IMG/VR virus record: IMGVR_UViG_3300028840_002847
Location: 1-64,000 of that record
Direction: 5' to 3' (one strand)
Length of the DNA: 64,000 nucleotides
DNA from: a virus
Shown: in pieces, positions 1 through 7,960 of the stretch
Numbering within the stretch: position 1 is the first letter of the stretch
Layout of the letters: every line of letters starts with the position of its first letter
Made by a program: the position numbers and the translations under genes
Notes under the pieces: model-generated
The model's database searches: none
What the model was told of the DNA's origin: nothing
The model's input: the letters and a program-made list of their open reading frames with translations, nothing else

Positions 1-82
1 CCCTCTCAGGGCATTGTAGAGCTATGGGTTGAGCACTACTAGGCGCTCAGCCCTAAGCTCTCCTTATGCTTTATTGCATATG

Positions 83-112
83 GGCGGCGCAGGCTTCGAC
101 ACCTGCGCTGCC
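83..112 (-). terminator. Hairpin with TGTCGAAG loop downstream of the small zinc protein gene
   Basis: An 11-bp stem (83-93 with 102-112, one G-T pair) closes an 8-nt loop at 94-101, read as TGTCGAAG on the minus strand. It lies directly 3' of the minus-strand gene ending at 122. No clear T-run follows, so Rho-independent termination is uncertain. The same loop tops hairpins at 61587-61616 and 63817-63834. Confidence 0.5.
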
Positions 113-121
113 TTAATATCC

Positions 122-364
122 TCAACCCTCATCATTTGGGGAGGCATACCACTTGCCATGCTCACCCTTAATAAACCAATAAGCGCCGCATATCTGACAC
201 TCCATTTCCATCCAAGCATCAAAGCCCACTTCCCTAAGCGGGCCTTCGCAATGCGGGCAAGAGGGCGCCACGCCTCTATCCTCAGCTACCAAAATGACGT
301 CCCTCTCGCTCCAAACTGCCCATTCACCATTGCATTCAATTGCCTTAATCTCGCTGCCTGTCAT
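122..364 (-). CDS. Small double-CxxC zinc-binding protein
   Basis: This 80-residue protein has two Cys pairs, CPHC near residue 36 and CQIC near residue 56, the spacing of a zinc ribbon. A good ribosome binding site (AAGGAG, 6 nt spacing) precedes the ATG at 364, and this supports the gene over the plus-strand frame covering the same bases. It resembles the many small zinc proteins of the minus-strand early region. Function is unknown; nucleic-acid or protein binding is the usual role of such domains. Confidence 0.75.
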   Translation of the reverse strand: MTGSEIKAIECNGEWAVWSERDVILVAEDRGVAPSCPHCEGPLREVGFDAWMEMECQICGAYWFIKGEHGKWYASPNDEG

Positions 365-502
365 ATTATTCTCCTTTCCCGCTATGCGGGGTCTTTAAAG
401 CGTGCGATCTGCACTTCTAACGTGTTATCTCAAGCTAGCCTATACCCTAATAAGCCAGCTTTACTGCTGAAACCCTGCTATTTCCAAGCGAAATAGCTAT
501 AA

Positions 503-574
503 AGCCTGCCGAGGATTCGAACCCCGCTCCTGCTTGCAATAAAGCAAGCAAGCGCCCCAAGTCCAGCGCAGGCT
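503..574 (-). tRNA. tRNA-like element, non-canonical anticodon arm
   Basis: The minus strand shows a 7-bp acceptor-type stem (503-509 with 568-574) and a convincing T-arm at 510-526: a 5-bp stem with one G-U pair and a TTCGAAT loop. The anticodon position is abnormal. GCTTGC/GCAAGC (532-537 with 544-549, extendable by one pair) closes a 6-nt loop, TTTATT, instead of a 5-bp stem with a 7-nt loop, so no anticodon can be assigned. The D-arm is also irregular and no CCA is encoded. It may be a degenerate tRNA or a tRNA mimic. It starts about 25 nt past the 3' side of the structured RNA candidate. Confidence 0.5.
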
Positions 575-599
575 ATTTGGAGGCTTCTCCCACAATTTA

Positions 600-1193
600 T
601 TAGGCTGCTTATTCAGCGAGGCTCGCATGGTTGACAATCCTCAAGCTAGGGCTCGCCCCTCAAGTGTTGGCTATGAGGGGGAGGGCTTTGGCTAGCGGGG
701 TAGGGCTCCCGCTTCGCTACTTCTCGCTCTGCTATTGCCAGCGCCCCTGTCGAGGGTGCGCTTGCCTATACCTAAATCTCAGGTTGCCCGCCCCAAATAT
801 TGGATGCGGTTTAATAGCCGGGTTCCACGCTTTGGCCCCACCGCAGGTTGCTCTTCCCATTGCTGGGCATCTTGGCAACCTGAGGACCGCTCGCCCCTTG
901 CGGGGGTCTTGGCTTGCCCGGGCTTCCACGCTTATGGTTAGCGCCCTGCCATCAGCAGGACTACCATTTGTATCCCCTAAGGATTTCACACCTTAAAGCT
1001 ATTGGCTAACCGTTAACCTCTTCTCCCTCCTCTAGCGTCTAGCGGGCCGCCCAACTCTTGCTTCGCGTGGTCTTATAGGGCTTGCGCCCCCGCCATCGGC
1101 CGGGCAATAAAGCAGCCGTTTTTCAGCTAACCCTCAACCTCCTGCTACCTCCTCCTTTGTCAAAGATCAAATAAAACTCCCTACCTAAACCAC
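600..1193 (-). ncRNA. Candidate large structured phage RNA (GOLLD/ROOL-like in kind, unassigned)
   Basis: No convincing protein is encoded here on either strand, but the minus strand folds into many helices. Examples are 936-942 with 1005-1011, 978-982 with 991-995, 945-949 with 955-959, 885-888 with 905-908, 844-851 with 875-882, 805-810 with 840-845, 740-748 with 753-762, and 694-699 with 708-713. Three hairpins end in GCAA (GNRA-type) loops on the minus strand only, at 860-863, 898-901 and 1082-1085, and this fixes the transcribed strand. The 10-nt string AAGCGTGGAA occurs twice. An extended -10 promoter lies at 1200-1208. Large phage RNAs such as GOLLD and ROOL are known near tRNAs and are about this long. 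No sequence match to those classes was tested, so family membership is inference. Confidence 0.5.
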
Positions 1194-1199
1194 TCCGCT

Positions 1200-1208
1200 A
1201 GTATAGCA
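1200..1208 (-). promoter_or_regulatory. Extended -10 promoter for the structured RNA
   Basis: The minus strand reads TGCTATACT, matching the extended -10 consensus TGnTATAAT in all but one base. No good -35 hexamer is seen, as is common for extended -10 promoters. The predicted start is near 1193, just before the structured region. Confidence 0.45.
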
Positions 1209-1288
1209 TGAGCAAAAAGATAATGGGCGCTCTGCCCTTAGGTTTGCATTATTACATATGTGCGGCTAAGGAAATATTATGAGGGGTG

Positions 1289-1320
1289 TGCGAACCCTAA
1301 GCTCTCCAATGGTTTTCGCA
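1289..1320. repeat. Dispersed repeat, copy with full inverted arms
   Basis: This 32-nt copy begins TGCGAA and ends TTCGCA, so its ends can pair. The interior carries CTAAGCTCTCCAATGG. It is the clearest member of the family together with 1621-1652. Confidence 0.75.
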
Positions 1321-1544
1321 CTTTTTCTTAGAGCTAGCTTGGTTCTGCTGAAAGCAACTTTGTTGAGAAAGATTTGACTTTTTCTTGACAGGTGCGCGAA
1401 GGGGGACCGCTTGCTCTTGTGCTAACCTATTGGAAATCAGCGGGTTATCAGCTGGGTTTGGGTAGAGCAAGCGTAAGTGGTTGGTTTTCAGCAGGACTAG
1501 CACAAATAAAATTGATCGAGGGGGTGAACGTCAATCATTTTGAA

Positions 1545-1570
1545 AGCTAAGGAGACCAATGGTTTTCGCA
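1545..1570. repeat. Dispersed repeat, GAGA-core copy
   Basis: The core reads CTAAGGAGACCAATGG followed by TTTTCGCA. The left arm is degenerate compared with the copy at 1289-1320. Confidence 0.7.
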
Positions 1571-1620
1571 CTTACCTCTTTTTCAACCCCGAATTCGAAA
1601 ATCAAATTGTGGCAAAACAG

Positions 1621-1652
1621 TGCGAAGCATAAGGTCTCCAGTGGTTTTCGCA
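1621..1652. repeat. Dispersed repeat, GTCT-core copy
   Basis: This copy has the same 32-nt length and the same TGCGAA/TTCGCA arms as 1289-1320, but the interior reads ATAAGGTCTCCAGTGG. The arms are conserved while the central tetramer differs. Confidence 0.75.
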
Positions 1653-1758
1653 GTTCAAAACTGGAAAATTCCGGGTAAGTTTGAAAAGCCCAGAAATGCC
1701 CGAGCGAAGCCCACTGGTCAGCTATGGTTTCAGGGCTGTTTTTGAAAATCATGGGGTG

Positions 1759-1780
1759 TGCGAAGCCTTAGGTCGTGGCG
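1759..1780. repeat. Dispersed repeat, degenerate copy
   Basis: TGCGAAGCCTTAGGTC is recognisable, but the right half has diverged. Confidence 0.5.
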
Positions 1781-1853
1781 TGATCAGGGCCCTCGTGCGT
1801 CGGGGTACCGCAAACGAACAAAGAAAGTGGGTCTAGCTGAAACCCATAGCCCT

Positions 1854-1884
1854 GAAGCCTAAGCTCTACAATGGGTTCGCACAC
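1854..1884. repeat. Dispersed repeat copy
   Basis: The core CCTAAGCTCTACAATGGG is followed by TTCGCAC. The left arm is shortened to GAAG. Confidence 0.65.
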
Positions 1885-2092
1885 CCCTGTTTCTGCGCTT
1901 CCAAACAAAAGGAGCAAGCCTTAGATGTGCGGAGACAGGCAAGCAAAGAAAAGCAGTCCTAGCAAGGAATTCACGCTAGATCTGCTAGTGGTTGATTTCC
2001 AATGGTTTGCGCAAGCCCAAGTGGGCTAGGAATGGCTTGGCGAAAGTGGGTGAAATGGGCTGATCTATGGGTATAAGGATATGCGTGCACCC

Positions 2093-2135
2093 GAGAAAAC
2101 CCGTTAGACGTGCTTCTCGCACGCTGGTTTTTCTC
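2093..2135. other. Strong two-tier hairpin
   Basis: GAGAAAACC (2093-2101) can pair with GGTTTTTCTC (2126-2135) with one bulge. Inside it, CGTGC (2109-2113) pairs with GCACG (2119-2123) around a TTCTC loop. On the plus strand the stem ends in a T-rich run, so it may terminate transcription towards queD. Confidence 0.45.
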
Positions 2136-2158
2136 TCCCTTTTCAACCCCTCACCCTA

Positions 2159-2185
2159 ACGAAGCATAAGGAGAGCAATGGGTTC
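2159..2185. repeat. Dispersed repeat copy
   Basis: The core is GCATAAGGAGAGCAATGGG. The flanks no longer form the TGCGAA/TTCGCA pair. Confidence 0.6.
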
Positions 2186-2200
2186 CTCCCCCTAAGGAAG

Positions 2201-2278
2201 CCTAAGGAGAACAATGGGTTGAGCGGGGTAGGTAAATAAAAGGAAAAAGGGGTGGCTCAGCCCACTGGAGAGCTTAGG
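2201..2278. repeat. Two repeat copies in inverted orientation
   Basis: The repeat at 2201-2224 and the copy at 2255-2278 are 24-nt arms that are imperfect reverse complements, separated by 30 nt. The mismatches fall mainly in the variable core tetramer. The element lies just before a TTGACA hexamer (2293-2298) and the queD-like gene. Confidence 0.65.
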
Positions 2279-2348
2279 GTTTCGCACTTTTTTGTTGACA
2301 GGTTTGGCAATAAGGTTTAGGTTGCACCTCTAACCTTTAAGGAGAAAT

Positions 2349-3044
2349 ATGACTAAGAGCCGCATAGGTATTTTGGCTGAGGAAATCTCGGCACTTTTCG
2401 CCAAAGCGCAAGCTAGCCATAAATCCTCTATTATTTTGGACCTCCTCATGCAGGGGGGCCGCATATACCAACCCACCATACCCGCTGAGGATTGGCGCTC
2501 CCAACCTGAGATTATGAGCTTGCTGCTTTATTGCGCAGGCTATAAAGAAGAAACGATAGGCTCATTTTCTTCACCCTCAACCTCAAGAGGGATTTCGCAG
2601 CAAGCTGTGAGCAAGCGCTTAATAAAGGCGGCCTTGCTTATGGACGAGCGCTTTGGCGGGGACCTCGCAGACTTGCGAGAAAGGAGAAATAAGGTGAAGC
2701 TATTATTCAAAACCCATTTTGACGCTGCTCATAATTTACCTAATTATGAGGGCGCTTGCGCTAATGTGCATGGGCATAGGTGGCTCGTAGATATTGAGCT
2801 AGAGGGCGAGGTAAATCCTGAGACAGGGATGGTAATGGACTTCAAAATCCTCAAGCGCTTAATAAACCCGCTATTGCCTGATCATTCTCAGGTAAATGAA
2901 ATAGTGGCTAATCCAACCGCTGAGAATATTGCGGGCTTCCTTTTCAATAAGATAACCAAAGCGCTTGCAAGCGCTGAGGTGAGGGCTAGGCTGCTGAGCC
3001 TCACGGTTTGGGAGACTCCAGAAACGGGGGCCAAATACCCTTAG
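2349..3044 (+). CDS. queD: QueD-like 6-carboxytetrahydropterin synthase with N-terminal extension
   Basis: The C-terminal part, from about residue 116, is a full QueD/6-PTPS T-fold domain. It has zinc ligands His128, His141 and His143 (AHNL and HGH), catalytic Cys137, an Asp178-His179 pair and the PTAENIA motif. QueD converts dihydroneopterin triphosphate to 6-carboxytetrahydropterin, the second step from GTP to preQ0. The first 115 residues are not part of QueD and include a helix-turn-helix-like segment (GISQQAVSKRLIKA). A GTG at 2694, preceded by AAGGAG with 7-8 nt spacing, sits exactly at the start of the QueD domain, so a 116-residue QueD may also be made from an internal start. The full ORF begins at an ATG behind AAGGAG. 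Confidence 0.88.
   Translation: MTKSRIGILAEEISALFAKAQASHKSSIILDLLMQGGRIYQPTIPAEDWRSQPEIMSLLLYCAGYKEETIGSFSSPSTSRGISQQAVSKRLIKAALLMDERFGGDLADLRERRNKVKLLFKTHFDAAHNLPNYEGACANVHGHRWLVDIELEGEVNPETGMVMDFKILKRLINPLLPDHSQVNEIVANPTAENIAGFLFNKITKALASAEVRARLLSLTVWETPETGAKYP
2694..2696 (+). promoter_or_regulatory. Probable internal start codon with its own ribosome binding site
   Basis: In-frame GTG after AAGGAGAAATAAG. The ribosome binding site is as good as those of the neighbouring genes, and the codon coincides with residue 1 of a normal-length QueD. Confidence 0.5.
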
Positions 3045-3259
3045 CGCTCTAGCTAGCTTGGAGCATACTTAACCCTCACCCCTACCCGCTTAATAACCTA
3101 GCTCAGATGAGCGTCTAGCACGCTTATGAAAAGCCTGAGAAGAGCCATGAGCCTTAATTCAACTATCAGCAGGAACACTAAGGAGACAGCAGGGCAGAGC
3201 CGGCCGCCCCTCTCAACCCTAAGGAGAAGGGGTAGGAGAGCCTTATAAGGAGATAAAGC
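3045..3259. other. Intergenic spacer between queD and queE
   Basis: No gene is seen. The spacer contains CTAGC-rich sequence and an AACCCTAAGGAGAAGGGG string related to the dispersed repeats. A TTATAAGGAGATAAAGC ribosome binding site leads into queE. Confidence 0.5.
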
Positions 3260-3868
3260 ATGAAGCTAAAGGTGGTAGAGCAATTTATGAGCGTGCAGGG
3301 GGAGGGCTTGCTAGCAGGACAGGGCGCTTGGTTTATTAGGCTCTTTGGTTGTAATTTGAACTGTCCTTTTTGCGATACCCGCTATGCGAAAGAGGGCAAG
3401 GGGTGGGAGCGAATAGAGGTGCATGAGCTAGCAAGAGCAGCCATTGCAAGCAAGCAAGCCCTAGTGGTAATAACAGGTGGCGAGCCAACTCAGCAAGCCC
3501 GAGGGCTATGCAGGCTCATTGAGCGCTTGCAGGGCGCAGGGCTTAAGGTGCAGGTTGAGACTAATGGAACGGGCAAGCTATCCAAGCCCGCTAGCCTAGC
3601 CCATATAACCCTAAGCCCAAAGCGCAAGGGGAGGGTGTGCAAGCAGATGTGGCGCATAGCGGATGAGGTAAAGATTGTGGTGGGCAATAAAGTGGACGTG
3701 GACTGGGCGCTAGCATTGGTGAGCAGGGCTGGCTATAAGGGTGCTGTGAGCTTGCAGGCTGAGAGTAATAGCAAGCAAGCGCTTAAGGCAGCTATTAAGG
3801 CAGTGCTGGAGAGTAGAGGTAAGCTGAGGTTAAGCGTGCAACTTCATAAATTGATTGAGGTGAAATAA
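3260..3868 (+). CDS. queE: 7-carboxy-7-deazaguanine synthase (radical SAM)
   Basis: The 202-residue protein carries the QueE start FMSVQGEG and a radical-SAM CxxxCxxC cluster motif at Cys31, Cys35 and Cys38 (CNLNCPFC). The TGGEP SAM-binding motif follows near residue 71. QueE rearranges 6-carboxytetrahydropterin into 7-carboxy-7-deazaguanine using SAM and a [4Fe-4S] cluster. Length is normal for short QueE proteins. It lies between queD and folE, consistent with a phage-encoded 7-deazaguanine pathway. A good ribosome binding site (AAGGAG) precedes the ATG. Confidence 0.93.
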   Translation: MKLKVVEQFMSVQGEGLLAGQGAWFIRLFGCNLNCPFCDTRYAKEGKGWERIEVHELARAAIASKQALVVITGGEPTQQARGLCRLIERLQGAGLKVQVETNGTGKLSKPASLAHITLSPKRKGRVCKQMWRIADEVKIVVGNKVDVDWALALVSRAGYKGAVSLQAESNSKQALKAAIKAVLESRGKLRLSVQLHKLIEVK

Positions 3869-3960
3869 CGCAAGCGGCGCAAGCGCTATAAAAGGCATTT
3901 GAAAAAGTAAATCGGGCAGGAGTGAGCGCCTAAGGTCTAGGCGTGCCTGCACGGGGTTAA

Positions 3961-3990
3961 GTGCGAAACCATAAGGAGATCAATAGGGAG
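3961..3990. repeat. Dispersed repeat copy upstream of folE
   Basis: GTGCGAAACCATAAGGAGAT matches the repeat family. It overlaps the extended folE reading frame and ends just before the folE ribosome binding site, so the longer GTG start at 3961 is probably not used. Confidence 0.6.
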
Positions 3991-3996
3991 AGAGGT

Positions 3997-4560
3997 ATGT
4001 ACGAAATAAAAGATGACATCGAGGCTATGCAATTTATTAAGAGCCTGCTGAGGTATATGGGAGAGGATCCCGAGCGGGAAGGATTAAAGCGGACGCCTGA
4101 GCGCATGGTGGCAGCAAGCAGGCAATTGTTTGCAGGCTATTCTCGATCCCCCGCTGAGGTGCTTAATAGAGTATTCACTTGCGCTTATGACGAGATGGTA
4201 GTGCTGAGAGATATTGAATTTTTCTCCACCTGTGAGCATCACCTCATGCCCTTTTTTGGGCGGGCTGCCATAGCATATATTCCTAATGGGAAAGTGGTAG
4301 GGATATCCAAGCTCGCCCGCTTGCTTGAGGTATATGCTAGGCGCTTACAAATCCAAGAGAAGCTCACAGCTCAAATAGCGGACGCCATTGAGAAGCACCT
4401 TGAGCCTAGGGGTACCGCAGTCTTTATCCAAGCTCAGCACCTTTGCATGACAGCGAGGGGAGTGGGCAAGCAGAATTCAATAATGGTAACGAGTACCCTG
4501 CGAGGCTGCTTCAAAGAGGGCGCCCCGAGAGCAGAGTTCCTAGCGCTTGCGAGGGCATAG
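3997..4560 (+). CDS. folE: GTP cyclohydrolase I
   Basis: The 187-residue protein has the FolE zinc and active-site motif TCEHH (Cys79, His81, His82), the second cysteine Cys150 in AQHLCM, and the [10 protein letters not shown]-type core ([17 protein letters not shown]). FolE opens GTP to dihydroneopterin triphosphate, the first step of the pathway continued by QueD and QueE. I chose ATG 3997, preceded by GGGAG at 8 nt, over the in-frame GTG at 3961 because the extra residues derive from a dispersed repeat. It is followed by about 550 nt without a gene. Confidence 0.93.
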
Positions 4561-4890
4561 CATAGCATTAGGCATTGGGCGCTGAGGACAGGGAAGAGGA
4601 CGGGACTCAATATTGAATACCCTAAGCCCTTGATCGCCTTATGTCTAGGGTGGGGAGAGCGGGGTAAGGGTGCGCAGGCATAAGGTCTGCTTAGGGCTCG
4701 CAGGGGTAAAGGGAACCACTTATGGGTTATAAGGGGAAGAGGCGCAGGTTGAATCTTGAGCTGCCTTATTTCTAGATTTGGTTTTGGCTAATCCTGATTC
4801 TCGATCCTGCTTGCGCTTGCTAGCTTGAGGGCTGCCTTATTTCTCGATCCTGCTGAGGGCAGCTCGTCCCATAATAATAATGAACGGGGT

Positions 4891-4920
4891 GTGCGAAGCA
4901 TAAGGAGACCAGTGGGCTGG
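4891..4920. repeat. Dispersed repeat copy
   Basis: GTGCGAAGCATAAGGAGACC followed by AGTGGG. The left arm is intact and the right arm diverged. Confidence 0.65.
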
Positions 4921-4936
4921 ACGGGGTGGCACCCCT

Positions 4937-4964
4937 CAGGGCTTAGGTCTCCAATGGTTTTCGC
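4937..4964. repeat. Dispersed repeat copy
   Basis: The core GGGCTTAGGTCTCCAATGG is followed by TTTTCGC. The right arm is intact and the left diverged. It lies 17 nt after the copy at 4891-4920. Confidence 0.65.
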
Positions 4965-4982
4965 GGGGTAGGGTGTCGCGAC

Positions 4983-5039
4983 TCAGGTGCCCCTTCCCTG
5001 ATTTTCGCTTCTCCGGGAACGAAGCGGCAGGTACCCTGA
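4983..5039 (+). promoter_or_regulatory. Structured leader upstream of the late operon
   Basis: CGCTTC (5006-5011) pairs with GAAGCG (5021-5026), and TCAGG (4983-4987) pairs with CCTGA (5035-5039), giving a nested structure about 80 nt before the first gene. It does not match a riboswitch class I can recognise. Confidence 0.3.
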
Positions 5040-5116
5040 CAATTTGACTGATCATGCGAAAAACTTAAAGTGGCATAATCGCCACCAACGGAAAGCAGTA
5101 AAGGGAGGACGGGATA

Positions 5117-5785
5117 ATGAGTGAGGAAAAAGAGGCATATATAGTGCGGGAAGCCTGCCACAGATGCGGGATAGTAGCGGAGCTGGGAGCGGACAAGCTC
5201 TGCAATGATTGCCGGGACGGGAAGCCACTCGTGGAGCAGTGCGCAAAGTGCGGGGCAAAGGGCAAAGTGGTACCGGAATCGGGATTGTGCGCTAAATGCG
5301 AAGCGGCACGCCTGAAAGAGGAAATGTTCCCGGAAAAACCGCCGCTCAGCGCGGGGCGGGTGCGGAAGACAGCGGGCGGGAAACGGAAAGCGCCTCAGGT
5401 GCGCTCTAAGGCTGTAAAAAAGGCAAAGTGTGCTAGGTGCGGGCGCAAAATGACGCTGATAAGCCGGAACCTCTGCGGGACCTGCTATACTATCGTCCGT
5501 AAAGCGGGTGACTTAGGAAACTTCCCTAAGGTATCACGGAGCAAAAAGGCCGCCCCGGCTAAAAAGGTCCAAGGGCTAGCGGTAATAGATATTCCGGTTT
5601 CCGAAAAGATCGATCTTCGTAGTCTAATTGCGGATATGCAGGAAAACATTGCCAAGGAATGCGAGGCAATGGTACTGTCTATTCGTCAACTCGCAGACCA
5701 GAAACGGGACGAAGCGGAAGCGCTCCGGGAAAAAGCTAACCAAGGCGAGGCAATCATAATCCGAATGAGGGAGCTAGCGTTATGA
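5117..5785 (+). CDS. Multi-zinc-ribbon protein with C-terminal coiled coil
   Basis: The 222-residue protein has three pairs of CxxC motifs: CHRC/CNDC (residues 14-33), CAKC/CAKC (about 42-60) and CARCGR/CGTC (about 108-125). A Lys/Arg/Ala-rich linker and a helical, Glu/Lys-rich C-terminus (about 165-222) follow. It resembles nucleic-acid-binding zinc proteins but belongs to no family I recognise. It opens the coupled operon that includes dpdA: its stop overlaps the next start (ATGA at 5782). Start chosen at the ATG behind GGGAGGACGGGATA. Confidence 0.8.
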   Translation: MSEEKEAYIVREACHRCGIVAELGADKLCNDCRDGKPLVEQCAKCGAKGKVVPESGLCAKCEAARLKEEMFPEKPPLSAGRVRKTAGGKRKAPQVRSKAVKKAKCARCGRKMTLISRNLCGTCYTIVRKAGDLGNFPKVSRSKKAAPAKKVQGLAVIDIPVSEKIDLRSLIADMQENIAKECEAMVLSIRQLADQKRDEAEALREKANQGEAIIIRMRELAL

Positions 5786-6168
5786 TAAATAATATTACCT
5801 TAAAGATTAATGAGGACGCGGTAATGTGCGCCATCCGTCCATATATCGTTGTCAACCTTCGCTGGGAAGGAGTCCATAATTGGCCCGGTTGCGACCTTCC
5901 GTCTGTCCTTTTCCTCCGGGATCCGCACCGCCACGTATTCCATATAGAAATCGGCAAACCAGTGAGCCACGGGGACCGGGATATAGAAATAATCATCTTT
6001 AAGCGTGCTGTCTTATCCTGTCTAGATGCTCACTTTCCAGACAGGGACATGGGAAGCCTATCCTGTGAACAGCTTGCAGAATTCCTGCTAAAAGAGTTCG
6101 GGGCAAAGTGGGTCAAAGTGCTTGAGGACGGGGAGAACGGGGCAGAAGTCCGAGCTGAGGTGCTATAA
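5782..6168 (+). CDS. T-fold (QueD/6-PTPS-like) family protein
   Basis: The 128-residue protein is not a standard enzyme, but its layout resembles 6-pyruvoyltetrahydropterin synthase-type T-fold proteins. There is a His cluster (PHRHVFHI, His49, His51, His54), a GSLSCEQLAEFL segment (91-102) like the PTAENLA helix of QueD, and a final VKVLED strand with Glu115 where QueD has VWET. A role in handling a pterin or deazaguanine is inferred from this and from its place two genes before dpdA. It overlaps both neighbours by 1-4 nt, so it is translationally coupled to them. Fold assignment is moderate confidence; function is unknown. Confidence 0.6.
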   Translation: MINNITLKINEDAVMCAIRPYIVVNLRWEGVHNWPGCDLPSVLFLRDPHRHVFHIEIGKPVSHGDRDIEIIIFKRAVLSCLDAHFPDRDMGSLSCEQLAEFLLKEFGAKWVKVLEDGENGAEVRAEVL

Positions 6169-7148
6169 TGAGCCGGTGGCGCAAAATATGGTATCTCCCC
6201 CTCGAATATAACGATATGCGGCCGACTTCCTGCTTTGACAGGGAGATTAGAGCTTACCTCGAAGGGTGCGGGTCAGACTTCTGCGTAATCAACTTCCCGG
6301 AGCTTGATAATGCCGGGATTAAAAAAGGCTCGTTCCTCGATGCCCCGACGACTATTCAGGTCAAGATGCAACAGCTTTCCGTTCTCGCCTACCGCTACGG
6401 GAGCGGGCAAATCACTGACGACGATCTGATATTCACTCAGGATATTTGGTTCCCGGGACTTACCGCTATTCCGTACCTTAATTATTTCTGCAAAGTGCGC
6501 CCTCAACTCCGCGGCTTACTCCATGCCGGGACCTTTACCGATACCGATTTCGTTCGGCAGCTTGAGCGCTGGGGCGCTATGTTTGAGAATTGTCTTTTCG
6601 ATATCGTCGATAAGGTTTTCGTGGCTAGCGATTTTATCAGGGACGACGTTCTCCAAAAGCGGTTGTGCAGCCCGGACAAGATTGAGGCAACCGGCTGGCC
6701 GAATGACTACTATGGAGTCGACCAGTATAAATCTCTCCGGGAAGAAAAAGAAGAACTCGTAGTTTTTTGCGCCCGCAACGTGGACGAAAAGCAGCCGTGG
6801 AAATTCGAGAAGCTAGCCGATAGGCTCCGCTTTTTTGGAGCTGAATTTATCAATACTCAAGCCCAGAACTTATCCCGGGAGCAGTATTACATGGTTCTCA
6901 ACCGCGCAAAGGTTATAGTCAGCTTCGCCCTGCAGGAAAACTTTGGTCATGCAATTATGGAAGCGGTCCATGCTGGCTGTATCCCGATAGTTCCCGACAG
7001 GTGCGCCTATCCCGAATTTTATCCCGACGAATACAGGTTCAGGGACTTCGACGAGTGTGTTGAAAAGGTGATGATGGCACTTTCCGGCACTCTACCCCGT
7101 ATTCCAGCCCCGGTTTTCCCGGATGCCGTCAAAAGGTGGTTCGAATGA
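6168..7148 (+). CDS. GT-B type glycosyltransferase (GT4-like)
   Basis: The 326-residue protein shows the C-terminal half of a GT-B glycosyltransferase: a VFCARNVDEKQ strand near residue 200, then the nucleotide-sugar motif ENFGHAIMEAVHAGCIPIVP near residues 262-283, the E-x7-E pattern of GT4 enzymes. The N-terminal acceptor half (about 1-190) is unfamiliar. Its stop overlaps the dpdA start (ATGA at 7145), the tightest coupling possible, so it may add sugar to the base that DpdA inserts. That is inference from context; modification of host glycans is the alternative. Confidence 0.75.
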   Translation: MSRWRKIWYLPLEYNDMRPTSCFDREIRAYLEGCGSDFCVINFPELDNAGIKKGSFLDAPTTIQVKMQQLSVLAYRYGSGQITDDDLIFTQDIWFPGLTAIPYLNYFCKVRPQLRGLLHAGTFTDTDFVRQLERWGAMFENCLFDIVDKVFVASDFIRDDVLQKRLCSPDKIEATGWPNDYYGVDQYKSLREEKEELVVFCARNVDEKQPWKFEKLADRLRFFGAEFINTQAQNLSREQYYMVLNRAKVIVSFALQENFGHAIMEAVHAGCIPIVPDRCAYPEFYPDEYRFRDFDECVEKVMMALSGTLPRIPAPVFPDAVKRWFE

Positions 7149-7960
7149 TATTATACGGAGCAGGGTGCGCTTTCGGGCAAGATCAGCTTCCCGCTTTTTG
7201 TGCCCGCCATAGGATAGCTAAGCTCTATTCCTATAATGGTCCTGGAGAAAGAAAGATTATTAATCGCTGGGCCGGCAAGATTAAGCTCATGGTTGATTCT
7301 GGTGCTCACTCATGGAATAAAATTCATACTGTCAAGGTCGGCGCTACTAAATCCCGACCTTGGCTCACCCCGGTGCGGAAGTATATTCCGCAGTATATAG
7401 AGTTCATCAAAGAGCACAAGGACAGAAAGCACTTGACATTCGTTGAGCTTGATGTCTATCGTTTCCTCCCGAAAGAGGAAATAGATGATATGTACAAGGA
7501 AGTGATAGCAATACCCGATAGGCAGTTCGAATACATTCGCGTGTACCACCCTGTTATGGACAACGGAACCCTGGAAGTGCTTGACGAATGGATTGCCGAG
7601 GGTCAAACTTACATAGGGATAGGGCGGGATAGCCAACCAATATTCCACAAGATTTTCAACAAGACCCGGGACAAGGTTCGCGTCCACGGCTTCGCTGTCC
7701 TCGGCAGGAAGATATTGGAAACCTATCCTTTTTACTCCGCTGACTCAACTACCCCGGTAACCCCTGCAATGTATGCCCTCCATATTGACCGCGACTTCAA
7801 ACTAAGGTCCAAGGTCAACCTGCGGGAGAATAAGCGCATGGAGGCGCTTCTGGACACGAAATACACGACTTTCAAGGCGTTCCTCGCCATGAAGTATATG
7901 CAGGACGAATTAACCCTGCTCTGGGAGAACCGGGGCGTAAAATGGCCTGTTGTTTATTAG
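7145..7960 (+). CDS. dpdA: DpdA-like 7-deazaguanine DNA transglycosylase
   Basis: This 271-residue protein has the layout of the TGT-related DpdA family. It has a VDSGAHSW motif (Asp51) at the position of the TGT DSGGFQ loop, ELDVYR (Asp103), GIGRDS (160-163), and HGFAVLG followed by PFYSADSTT (Asp200), the region of the DpdA/TGT nucleophile. DpdA exchanges guanine in DNA for a 7-deazaguanine base. It is shorter than bacterial DpdA, as phage forms often are. I chose ATG 7145, which overlaps the glycosyltransferase stop, over the GTG at 7136. The pathway genes queD, queE and folE lie 3 kb upstream. Family assignment is from motifs and context only. Confidence 0.8.
   Translation: MILYGAGCAFGQDQLPAFCARHRIAKLYSYNGPGERKIINRWAGKIKLMVDSGAHSWNKIHTVKVGATKSRPWLTPVRKYIPQYIEFIKEHKDRKHLTFVELDVYRFLPKEEIDDMYKEVIAIPDRQFEYIRVYHPVMDNGTLEVLDEWIAEGQTYIGIGRDSQPIFHKIFNKTRDKVRVHGFAVLGRKILETYPFYSADSTTPVTPAMYALHIDRDFKLRSKVNLRENKRMEALLDTKYTTFKAFLAMKYMQDELTLLWENRGVKWPVVY

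What the first reader, a model, noticed from the sequence alone, without database searches (positions are those of the whole stretch)
503..1208. Large structured RNA candidate with GNRA loops, own promoter and a tRNA-like 3' neighbour
Seen: no protein-like frame; at least eight helices; three GCAA-capped hairpins that are GNRA only on the minus strand; an extended -10 promoter exactly at the start; a tRNA-like element about 25 nt past the end. Known: large ornate RNAs of phages (GOLLD, ROOL) are about 0.6-0.8 kb and lie near tRNAs. Inference: this is a member or a new class of such RNA.
Basis: partly seen in the sequence, partly recalled or inferred. Interest (0 to 1): 0.87.

Follow-up and report, generated by a model that had tools for sequence, protein, structure and literature searches.

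The report
Orphan phage noncoding RNA candidate, GCAA-rich
Next to the leftward genes of an uncultured phage lies about 700 bases of non-protein-coding DNA whose minus strand carries an unusual cluster of four GCAA-capped hairpins, which suggests a structured RNA; it is not one of the known giant phage RNAs, no relatives were found, and its predicted folding is no better than chance, so it remains a candidate.

Summary
The window is 64 kb of a 66,187-bp IMG/VR phage record. Region 503-1208 lies in the divergent gap between leftward and rightward genes and is noncoding.

The GNRA observation holds and is stronger than stated. The minus strand carries four (not three) GCAA-capped hairpins with different stems within about 350 nt; shuffles give 0.08 (0 of 3000 reach 4), and no other such cluster occurs in 5.1 Mb of phage strand-sequence. 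An extended -10 lies at 1208(-). A pseudo-tRNA cloverleaf lies at 574-502(-), just above its shuffle control.

Against a GOLLD/ROOL-like RNA: no Rfam match, with the ROOL model shown to work. Body fold z is about -0.8, against -3.2 to -5.8 for four true ROOLs. Long hairpins are not in excess. No homologue was found in phages, plasmids, terminase-related loci or IMG/VR seed scans, so covariation cannot be tested.

Verdict: a plausible minus-strand structured RNA or long leader, unclassified and orphan. It is not a GOLLD or ROOL as Rfam defines them. Function and transcript ends are unproven.

The parts
575..1200 (-). candidate structured RNA body, transcribed leftward (ends inferred, not measured)
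   Evidence: noncoding; GCAA cluster on this strand only; fold z only -0.75
1200..1208 (-). extended -10 promoter-like site TGCTATACT
   Evidence: no -35; 13 such sites in the genome
1078..1089 (-). GCAA hairpin GGGC-GCAA-GCCC
   Evidence: pair probability 0.02 unconstrained
894..905 (-). GCAA hairpin CCCC-GCAA-GGGG
   Evidence: pair probability 0.5
844..882 (-). hairpin CAGGUUGC/GCAACCUG enclosing an internal loop and CCCA-GCAA-UGGG (867-856)
   Evidence: pair probabilities 0.89 and 0.97
731..742 (-). GCAA hairpin GCUG-GCAA-UAGC
   Evidence: pair probability about 0; the weakest of the four
936..1011 (-). three-way junction GGUUAGC/GCUAACC with two inner hairpins (998-975, 961-943)
   Evidence: pair probabilities 0.81-0.96
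924..933 (-). AAGCGUGGAA motif, copy 1 (copy 2 starts at 832)
   Evidence: repeated motif; seed scans found no RNA homologue
778..884 (-). possible switch: CUCAGGUUGCC (from 884) can pair with GCAACCUG (from 851) or with GGCAACCUGAG (from 788)
   Evidence: sequence positions; inference only
502..574 (-). tRNA-like element: AGCCUGC/GCAGGCU acceptor, CGGGG-UUCGAAU-CCUCG T-arm, hairpin with UUUAUU loop
   Evidence: competing long helix with 654-615
365..501 (-). structured leader between the candidate and the first leftward gene
   Evidence: fold z -3.2 for 365-502; no intrinsic terminator found here
122..364 (-). 80-aa ORF, first gene downstream of the RNA, with ribosome site
   Evidence: coding score 0.211, AAAGGAGAATAATATG

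Best explanation
The minus strand from about 1200 to about 500 most likely encodes an unclassified structured noncoding RNA made at the head of the leftward gene block, as a long leader or as an RNA released from it. Transcription would start at the extended -10 near 1200 and run through GCAA-capped hairpins, a three-way junction and the tRNA-like fold at 574-502, and, with no recognised terminator, on into the 364-122 gene. The GCAA loops would act as docking points that hold a compact fold together; the tRNA-like fold would either cap the 3' end or be the processing point. Shown here: noncoding, strand-specific GCAA cluster, promoter-like site, tRNA-like pattern, adjacency to the leftward genes. 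Inferred: transcription, tertiary docking, processing, and any role in early gene control or as a free RNA.
For: Noncoding. Four GCAA hairpins with different stems, one strand only: 0 of 3000 shuffles and the only such cluster in 5.1 Mb of strand-bases. True ROOLs show the same strand asymmetry of GNRA hairpins, 1-4 sense and 0-1 antisense. G>C and A>T on this strand as in ROOL, although leftward genes share that bias. Extended -10. tRNA-like element just above its shuffle control. Stable folding of the 3' part: 370-1208 z -3.5, 365-502 z -3.2.
Against: Body fold z about -0.8, where four ROOLs give -3.2 to -5.8. Long hairpins not in excess. Two or three of the GCAA hairpins are not favoured thermodynamically. 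No homologue, so no covariation. No RNA data.
Confidence: 0.45

Rival explanations
1. It is mainly a DNA control region (promoters, operators, perhaps a replication origin) between divergent gene blocks, transcribed at most as an unstructured leader. Its hairpins are by-products of G+C-rich, repeat-rich sequence.
For: The neighbouring 1288-2287 stretch is full of a dispersed inverted-repeat motif also found near other genes; the body folds no better than shuffles; long hairpins are not in excess.
Against: The dispersed repeats stop at 1288 and are absent from 575-1208; GCAA hairpins are confined to one strand and exceed all controls.
Confidence: 0.4
2. A divergent GOLLD or ROOL RNA that acts as a cage-forming phage RNA near a tRNA.
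For: Size about 0.6-0.7 kb, noncoding, GNRA loops, tRNA-like neighbour, phage origin; GOLLD and ROOL often lie near tRNAs (PMC12286853).
Against: No covariance-model match, ROOL model validated on real examples; fold stability far lower than ROOL.
Confidence: 0.05
3. A decayed region: a pseudo-tRNA and remnants of lost genes, with no present function.
For: tRNA-like element with defective anticodon loop and D arm and no CCA; no tRNA in the window; no conservation detectable.
Against: Phage genomes rarely keep 0.7 kb of junk (general knowledge); no trace of a coding frame; GCAA cluster.
Confidence: 0.1

Closest known systems
ROOL RNA (Rfam RF03087)
   Same: about 0.58 kb, phage or prophage, noncoding, GNRA hairpins on the sense strand, often near tRNAs
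   Different: no model match; body fold z about -0.8 against -3.2 to -5.8; G+C 0.56 against 0.39-0.44
GOLLD RNA (Rfam RF02032)
   Same: large phage RNA, tRNA neighbourhood (PMC12286853)
   Different: no model match; no positive control for this model obtained here
Unclassified long noncoding RNAs of phages ICP1 and K
   Same: noncoding stretch of about 0.8-1 kb without an assigned family (PMC7567579, PMC9241854)
   Different: those are seen by RNA-seq, this one is not; the ICP1 gap has no GNRA excess and a fold z of about -1.9 to -2.6
tRNA
   Same: 7-bp acceptor stem and a consensus T-arm at 574-502
   Different: 8-nt anticodon loop, hardly any D stem, no CCA, rejected by default ARAGORN and not matched by the Rfam models at E up to 10

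Membership tests
ROOL | match to the RF03087 covariance model | tested here: not met
   model shown to work
ROOL | highly stable elaborate secondary structure | tested here: not met
   z -0.89 (body) against -3.2 to -5.75 for four ROOLs
ROOL | forms a homo-oligomeric nanocage | not testable with these tools
   needs cryo-EM or mass measurement
GOLLD | match to the RF02032 covariance model (conserved 3' region) | tested here: not met
   no positive control rang
GOLLD | location near or with tRNA genes | tested here: inconclusive
   no tRNA gene in the window; only a pseudo-tRNA at 574-502
GOLLD / ROOL | compensatory base changes among homologues | not testable with these tools
   no homologue found
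tRNA | complete cloverleaf with 7-nt anticodon loop | tested here: not met
tmRNA, group I or II intron, other Rfam classes | match to the Rfam model, or to ARAGORN for tmRNA | tested here: not met

The most novel reading that the evidence does not exclude
A new class of large phage RNA, rich in GCAA tetraloops, whose 3' end is a tRNA mimic cut by the host's tRNA-processing enzymes (RNase P or RNase Z), so that the RNA is released from the early transcript without a terminator, comparable in logic to the tRNA-like 3' end of mammalian MALAT1 (own knowledge).
Probability: 0.1. Interest if true: 0.75.

Novelty: new member of a known kind. Interest (0 to 1): 0.4.

Why it matters
Large noncoding RNAs are among the most abundant transcripts of some phages and their functions are unknown. 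An orphan outside GOLLD and ROOL would show that such RNAs are more diverse than the catalogued families. The work also gives a calibrated yardstick: true ROOLs pass a fold-stability test that this candidate fails, while both show strand-specific GNRA hairpins.

Tried and rejected
Terminase alignment: 80 viral loci and 80 genome loci, best identity 33-34%, no RNA match. The one small match, L099, lies in a coding exon.

tRNA 3'-end 20-mer in 257 Gb of bacterial genomes: none, so no evidence that the T-arm is an attachment site copied from a sequenced host tRNA.

Interrupted tRNA-Arg 1133-501 with a 537-nt intron: no hit in 200 shuffles, but its acceptor stem is poor (G-T pairs and a mismatch) compared with the contiguous 7-bp stem, and no intron family matches; rejected.

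tmRNA: only relaxed 'possible' calls that occur all over the region.

preQ1-II riboswitch at 432-362(-): 20.7 bits against a cut-off of 47, E = 3; rejected.

Two searches for control genomes failed for technical reasons. No metagenome scan was available.

Full report
Setting. The window is bases 1-64000 of a 66,187-bp IMG/VR virus record, a tailed phage with portal, capsid and tape-measure genes and QueD-, QueE-, FolE- and tRNA-guanine-transglycosylase-like genes at 2349-7960. Rightward genes fill 2349 to about 42,300 and mostly leftward genes the rest; the GC skew changes sign accordingly. Its terminase is at best 33-34% identical to anything in IMG/VR or GTDB genomes, so the phage is an orphan; most GTDB relatives of the terminase are in Firmicutes. 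The finding lies in the divergent gap 365-2348, on the side of the leftward genes.

Coding. A codon model trained on this phage scores genes at 0.23 per codon on average (minimum 0.11). The two chance frames inside the finding score -0.04 and -0.08 and lack ribosome sites, whereas the 80-aa gene 364-122(-) scores 0.21 behind AAAGGAG. The region is noncoding, and any leftward transcript would lead into that gene. No intrinsic terminator was found between the candidate and that gene.

GNRA hairpins. Shuffles preserving dinucleotides expect 0.08, and none of 3000 reaches four. In 5.1 Mb of phage strand-bases, this is the only place with four hairpins sharing one GNRA loop but differing in stem within 360 nt. 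Different stems under one loop is what a selected tetraloop would look like. The caveat is that the loop was noticed first and tested afterwards on the same sequence.

Fold stability. As a whole the region does not fold better than shuffled sequence: z -0.88 for 495-1215(-) and -0.75 for 575-1208(-); long hairpins are not in excess. To learn whether that matters, four true ROOL RNAs were fetched from Lactobacillales genomes and tested the same way: z -3.2 to -5.75. The candidate body gives -0.89 in that run. So a ROOL-grade structure is not supported, although single-sequence energy is not decisive. Adding the 3' part raises the signal (370-1208: z -3.5), because the stretch at about 365-600 is strongly foldable on both strands. 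The most reliable local elements are the 882-844 hairpin with its GCAA cap and the three-way junction 1011-936. Three of the four GCAA hairpins are not firmly in the ensemble; enforcing all four costs 6.4 of 281 kcal/mol, a penalty that tertiary contacts could pay, which is inference.

tRNA-like element. It lies at 574-502(-), inside the coordinates. Acceptor stem 7 of 7, T-arm GGTTCGAATCC, but an 8-nt anticodon loop, hardly any D stem and no CCA. ARAGORN rejects it by default; its relaxed score of 96.7 just exceeds the best of 200 shuffles, and another relaxed hit at 2245-2341 is as high. Its T-arm strand can instead pair with 654-615 in a long helix favoured in the ensemble. A pseudo-tRNA, a tRNA mimic and part of a long hairpin all remain possible. 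The 20-nt 3' end does not occur in 257 Gb of bacterial genomes.

Families and homologues. No Rfam family matches at gathering level, nor credibly at E up to 10; GOLLD and ROOL models find nothing in the record. ROOL absence is a validated negative; for GOLLD no positive control was obtained. No homologue was found by any search listed under 'tried and rejected', so covariation, the decisive test, could not be run.

Mechanism. The best-supported reading is a leftward RNA at the head of the leftward gene block, either a structured leader or an RNA released from it, with the GCAA loops as docking points. The closest parallels in kind are the unclassified long noncoding RNAs of ICP1 and phage K (PMC7567579, PMC9241854), whose functions are unknown. 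A DNA control region with incidental hairpins is nearly as likely.

Verdict. Real and stronger than chance in one feature (GCAA cluster), ordinary in another (folding energy), outside the named families, and without relatives. An orphan candidate, worth a covariation test when relatives are found.

Noticed in passing
window 1288-2287, 4891-4964; record position 66021-65985(-): Dispersed repeat GTGCGAA-CC-TAAG-NNNNCC-ARTGG-TTCGCAC, about ten copies outside genes. Its variable centres form mutually complementary sets (GCTCTCC with GGAGAGC, GGTCTCC with GGAGACC), as kissing loops or inverted operators would.
   Followed up: partly
window 1-106 and record 65983-66087 (partial copies at 65280-65380, 64929-65001): An element of about 110 nt duplicated at 84% identity, very stable on both strands (z about -6 on plus, -5.5 on minus), followed in one copy directly by the ribosome site of a leftward gene. 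The copy at 1-106 contains an exact 11-nt tetraloop-receptor pairing TATGG/CCTAAG.
   Followed up: partly
window 93, 61597, 63821; record 65359, 66074: Hairpin core GCTTCGACACC in five copies, several of them between leftward genes.
   Followed up: no
window 431-399(-), 2093-2125(+); record about 64833-64788(-): Shared motif GAGAWAACMCGTTAGAMGTGC...GCACG near the start of both gene blocks, a possible common promoter or leader element.
   Followed up: no
window 68, 2525, 536-545(-), 1104-1113(-), 35182(-); record 66050: The 10-mer GCTTTATTGC occurs six times where about 0.1 is expected by chance; some copies form hairpin loops.
   Followed up: no
window 2349-7960: QueD-, QueE-, FolE- and tRNA-guanine-transglycosylase-like genes, suggesting 7-deazaguanine modification of the phage DNA.
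   Followed up: partly
L099 18300-18420: Sequence with a group-I-intron-like 3' end (GAAGATATAGTCC) just upstream of a capsid-like coding stretch in an unrelated phage contig.
   Followed up: no
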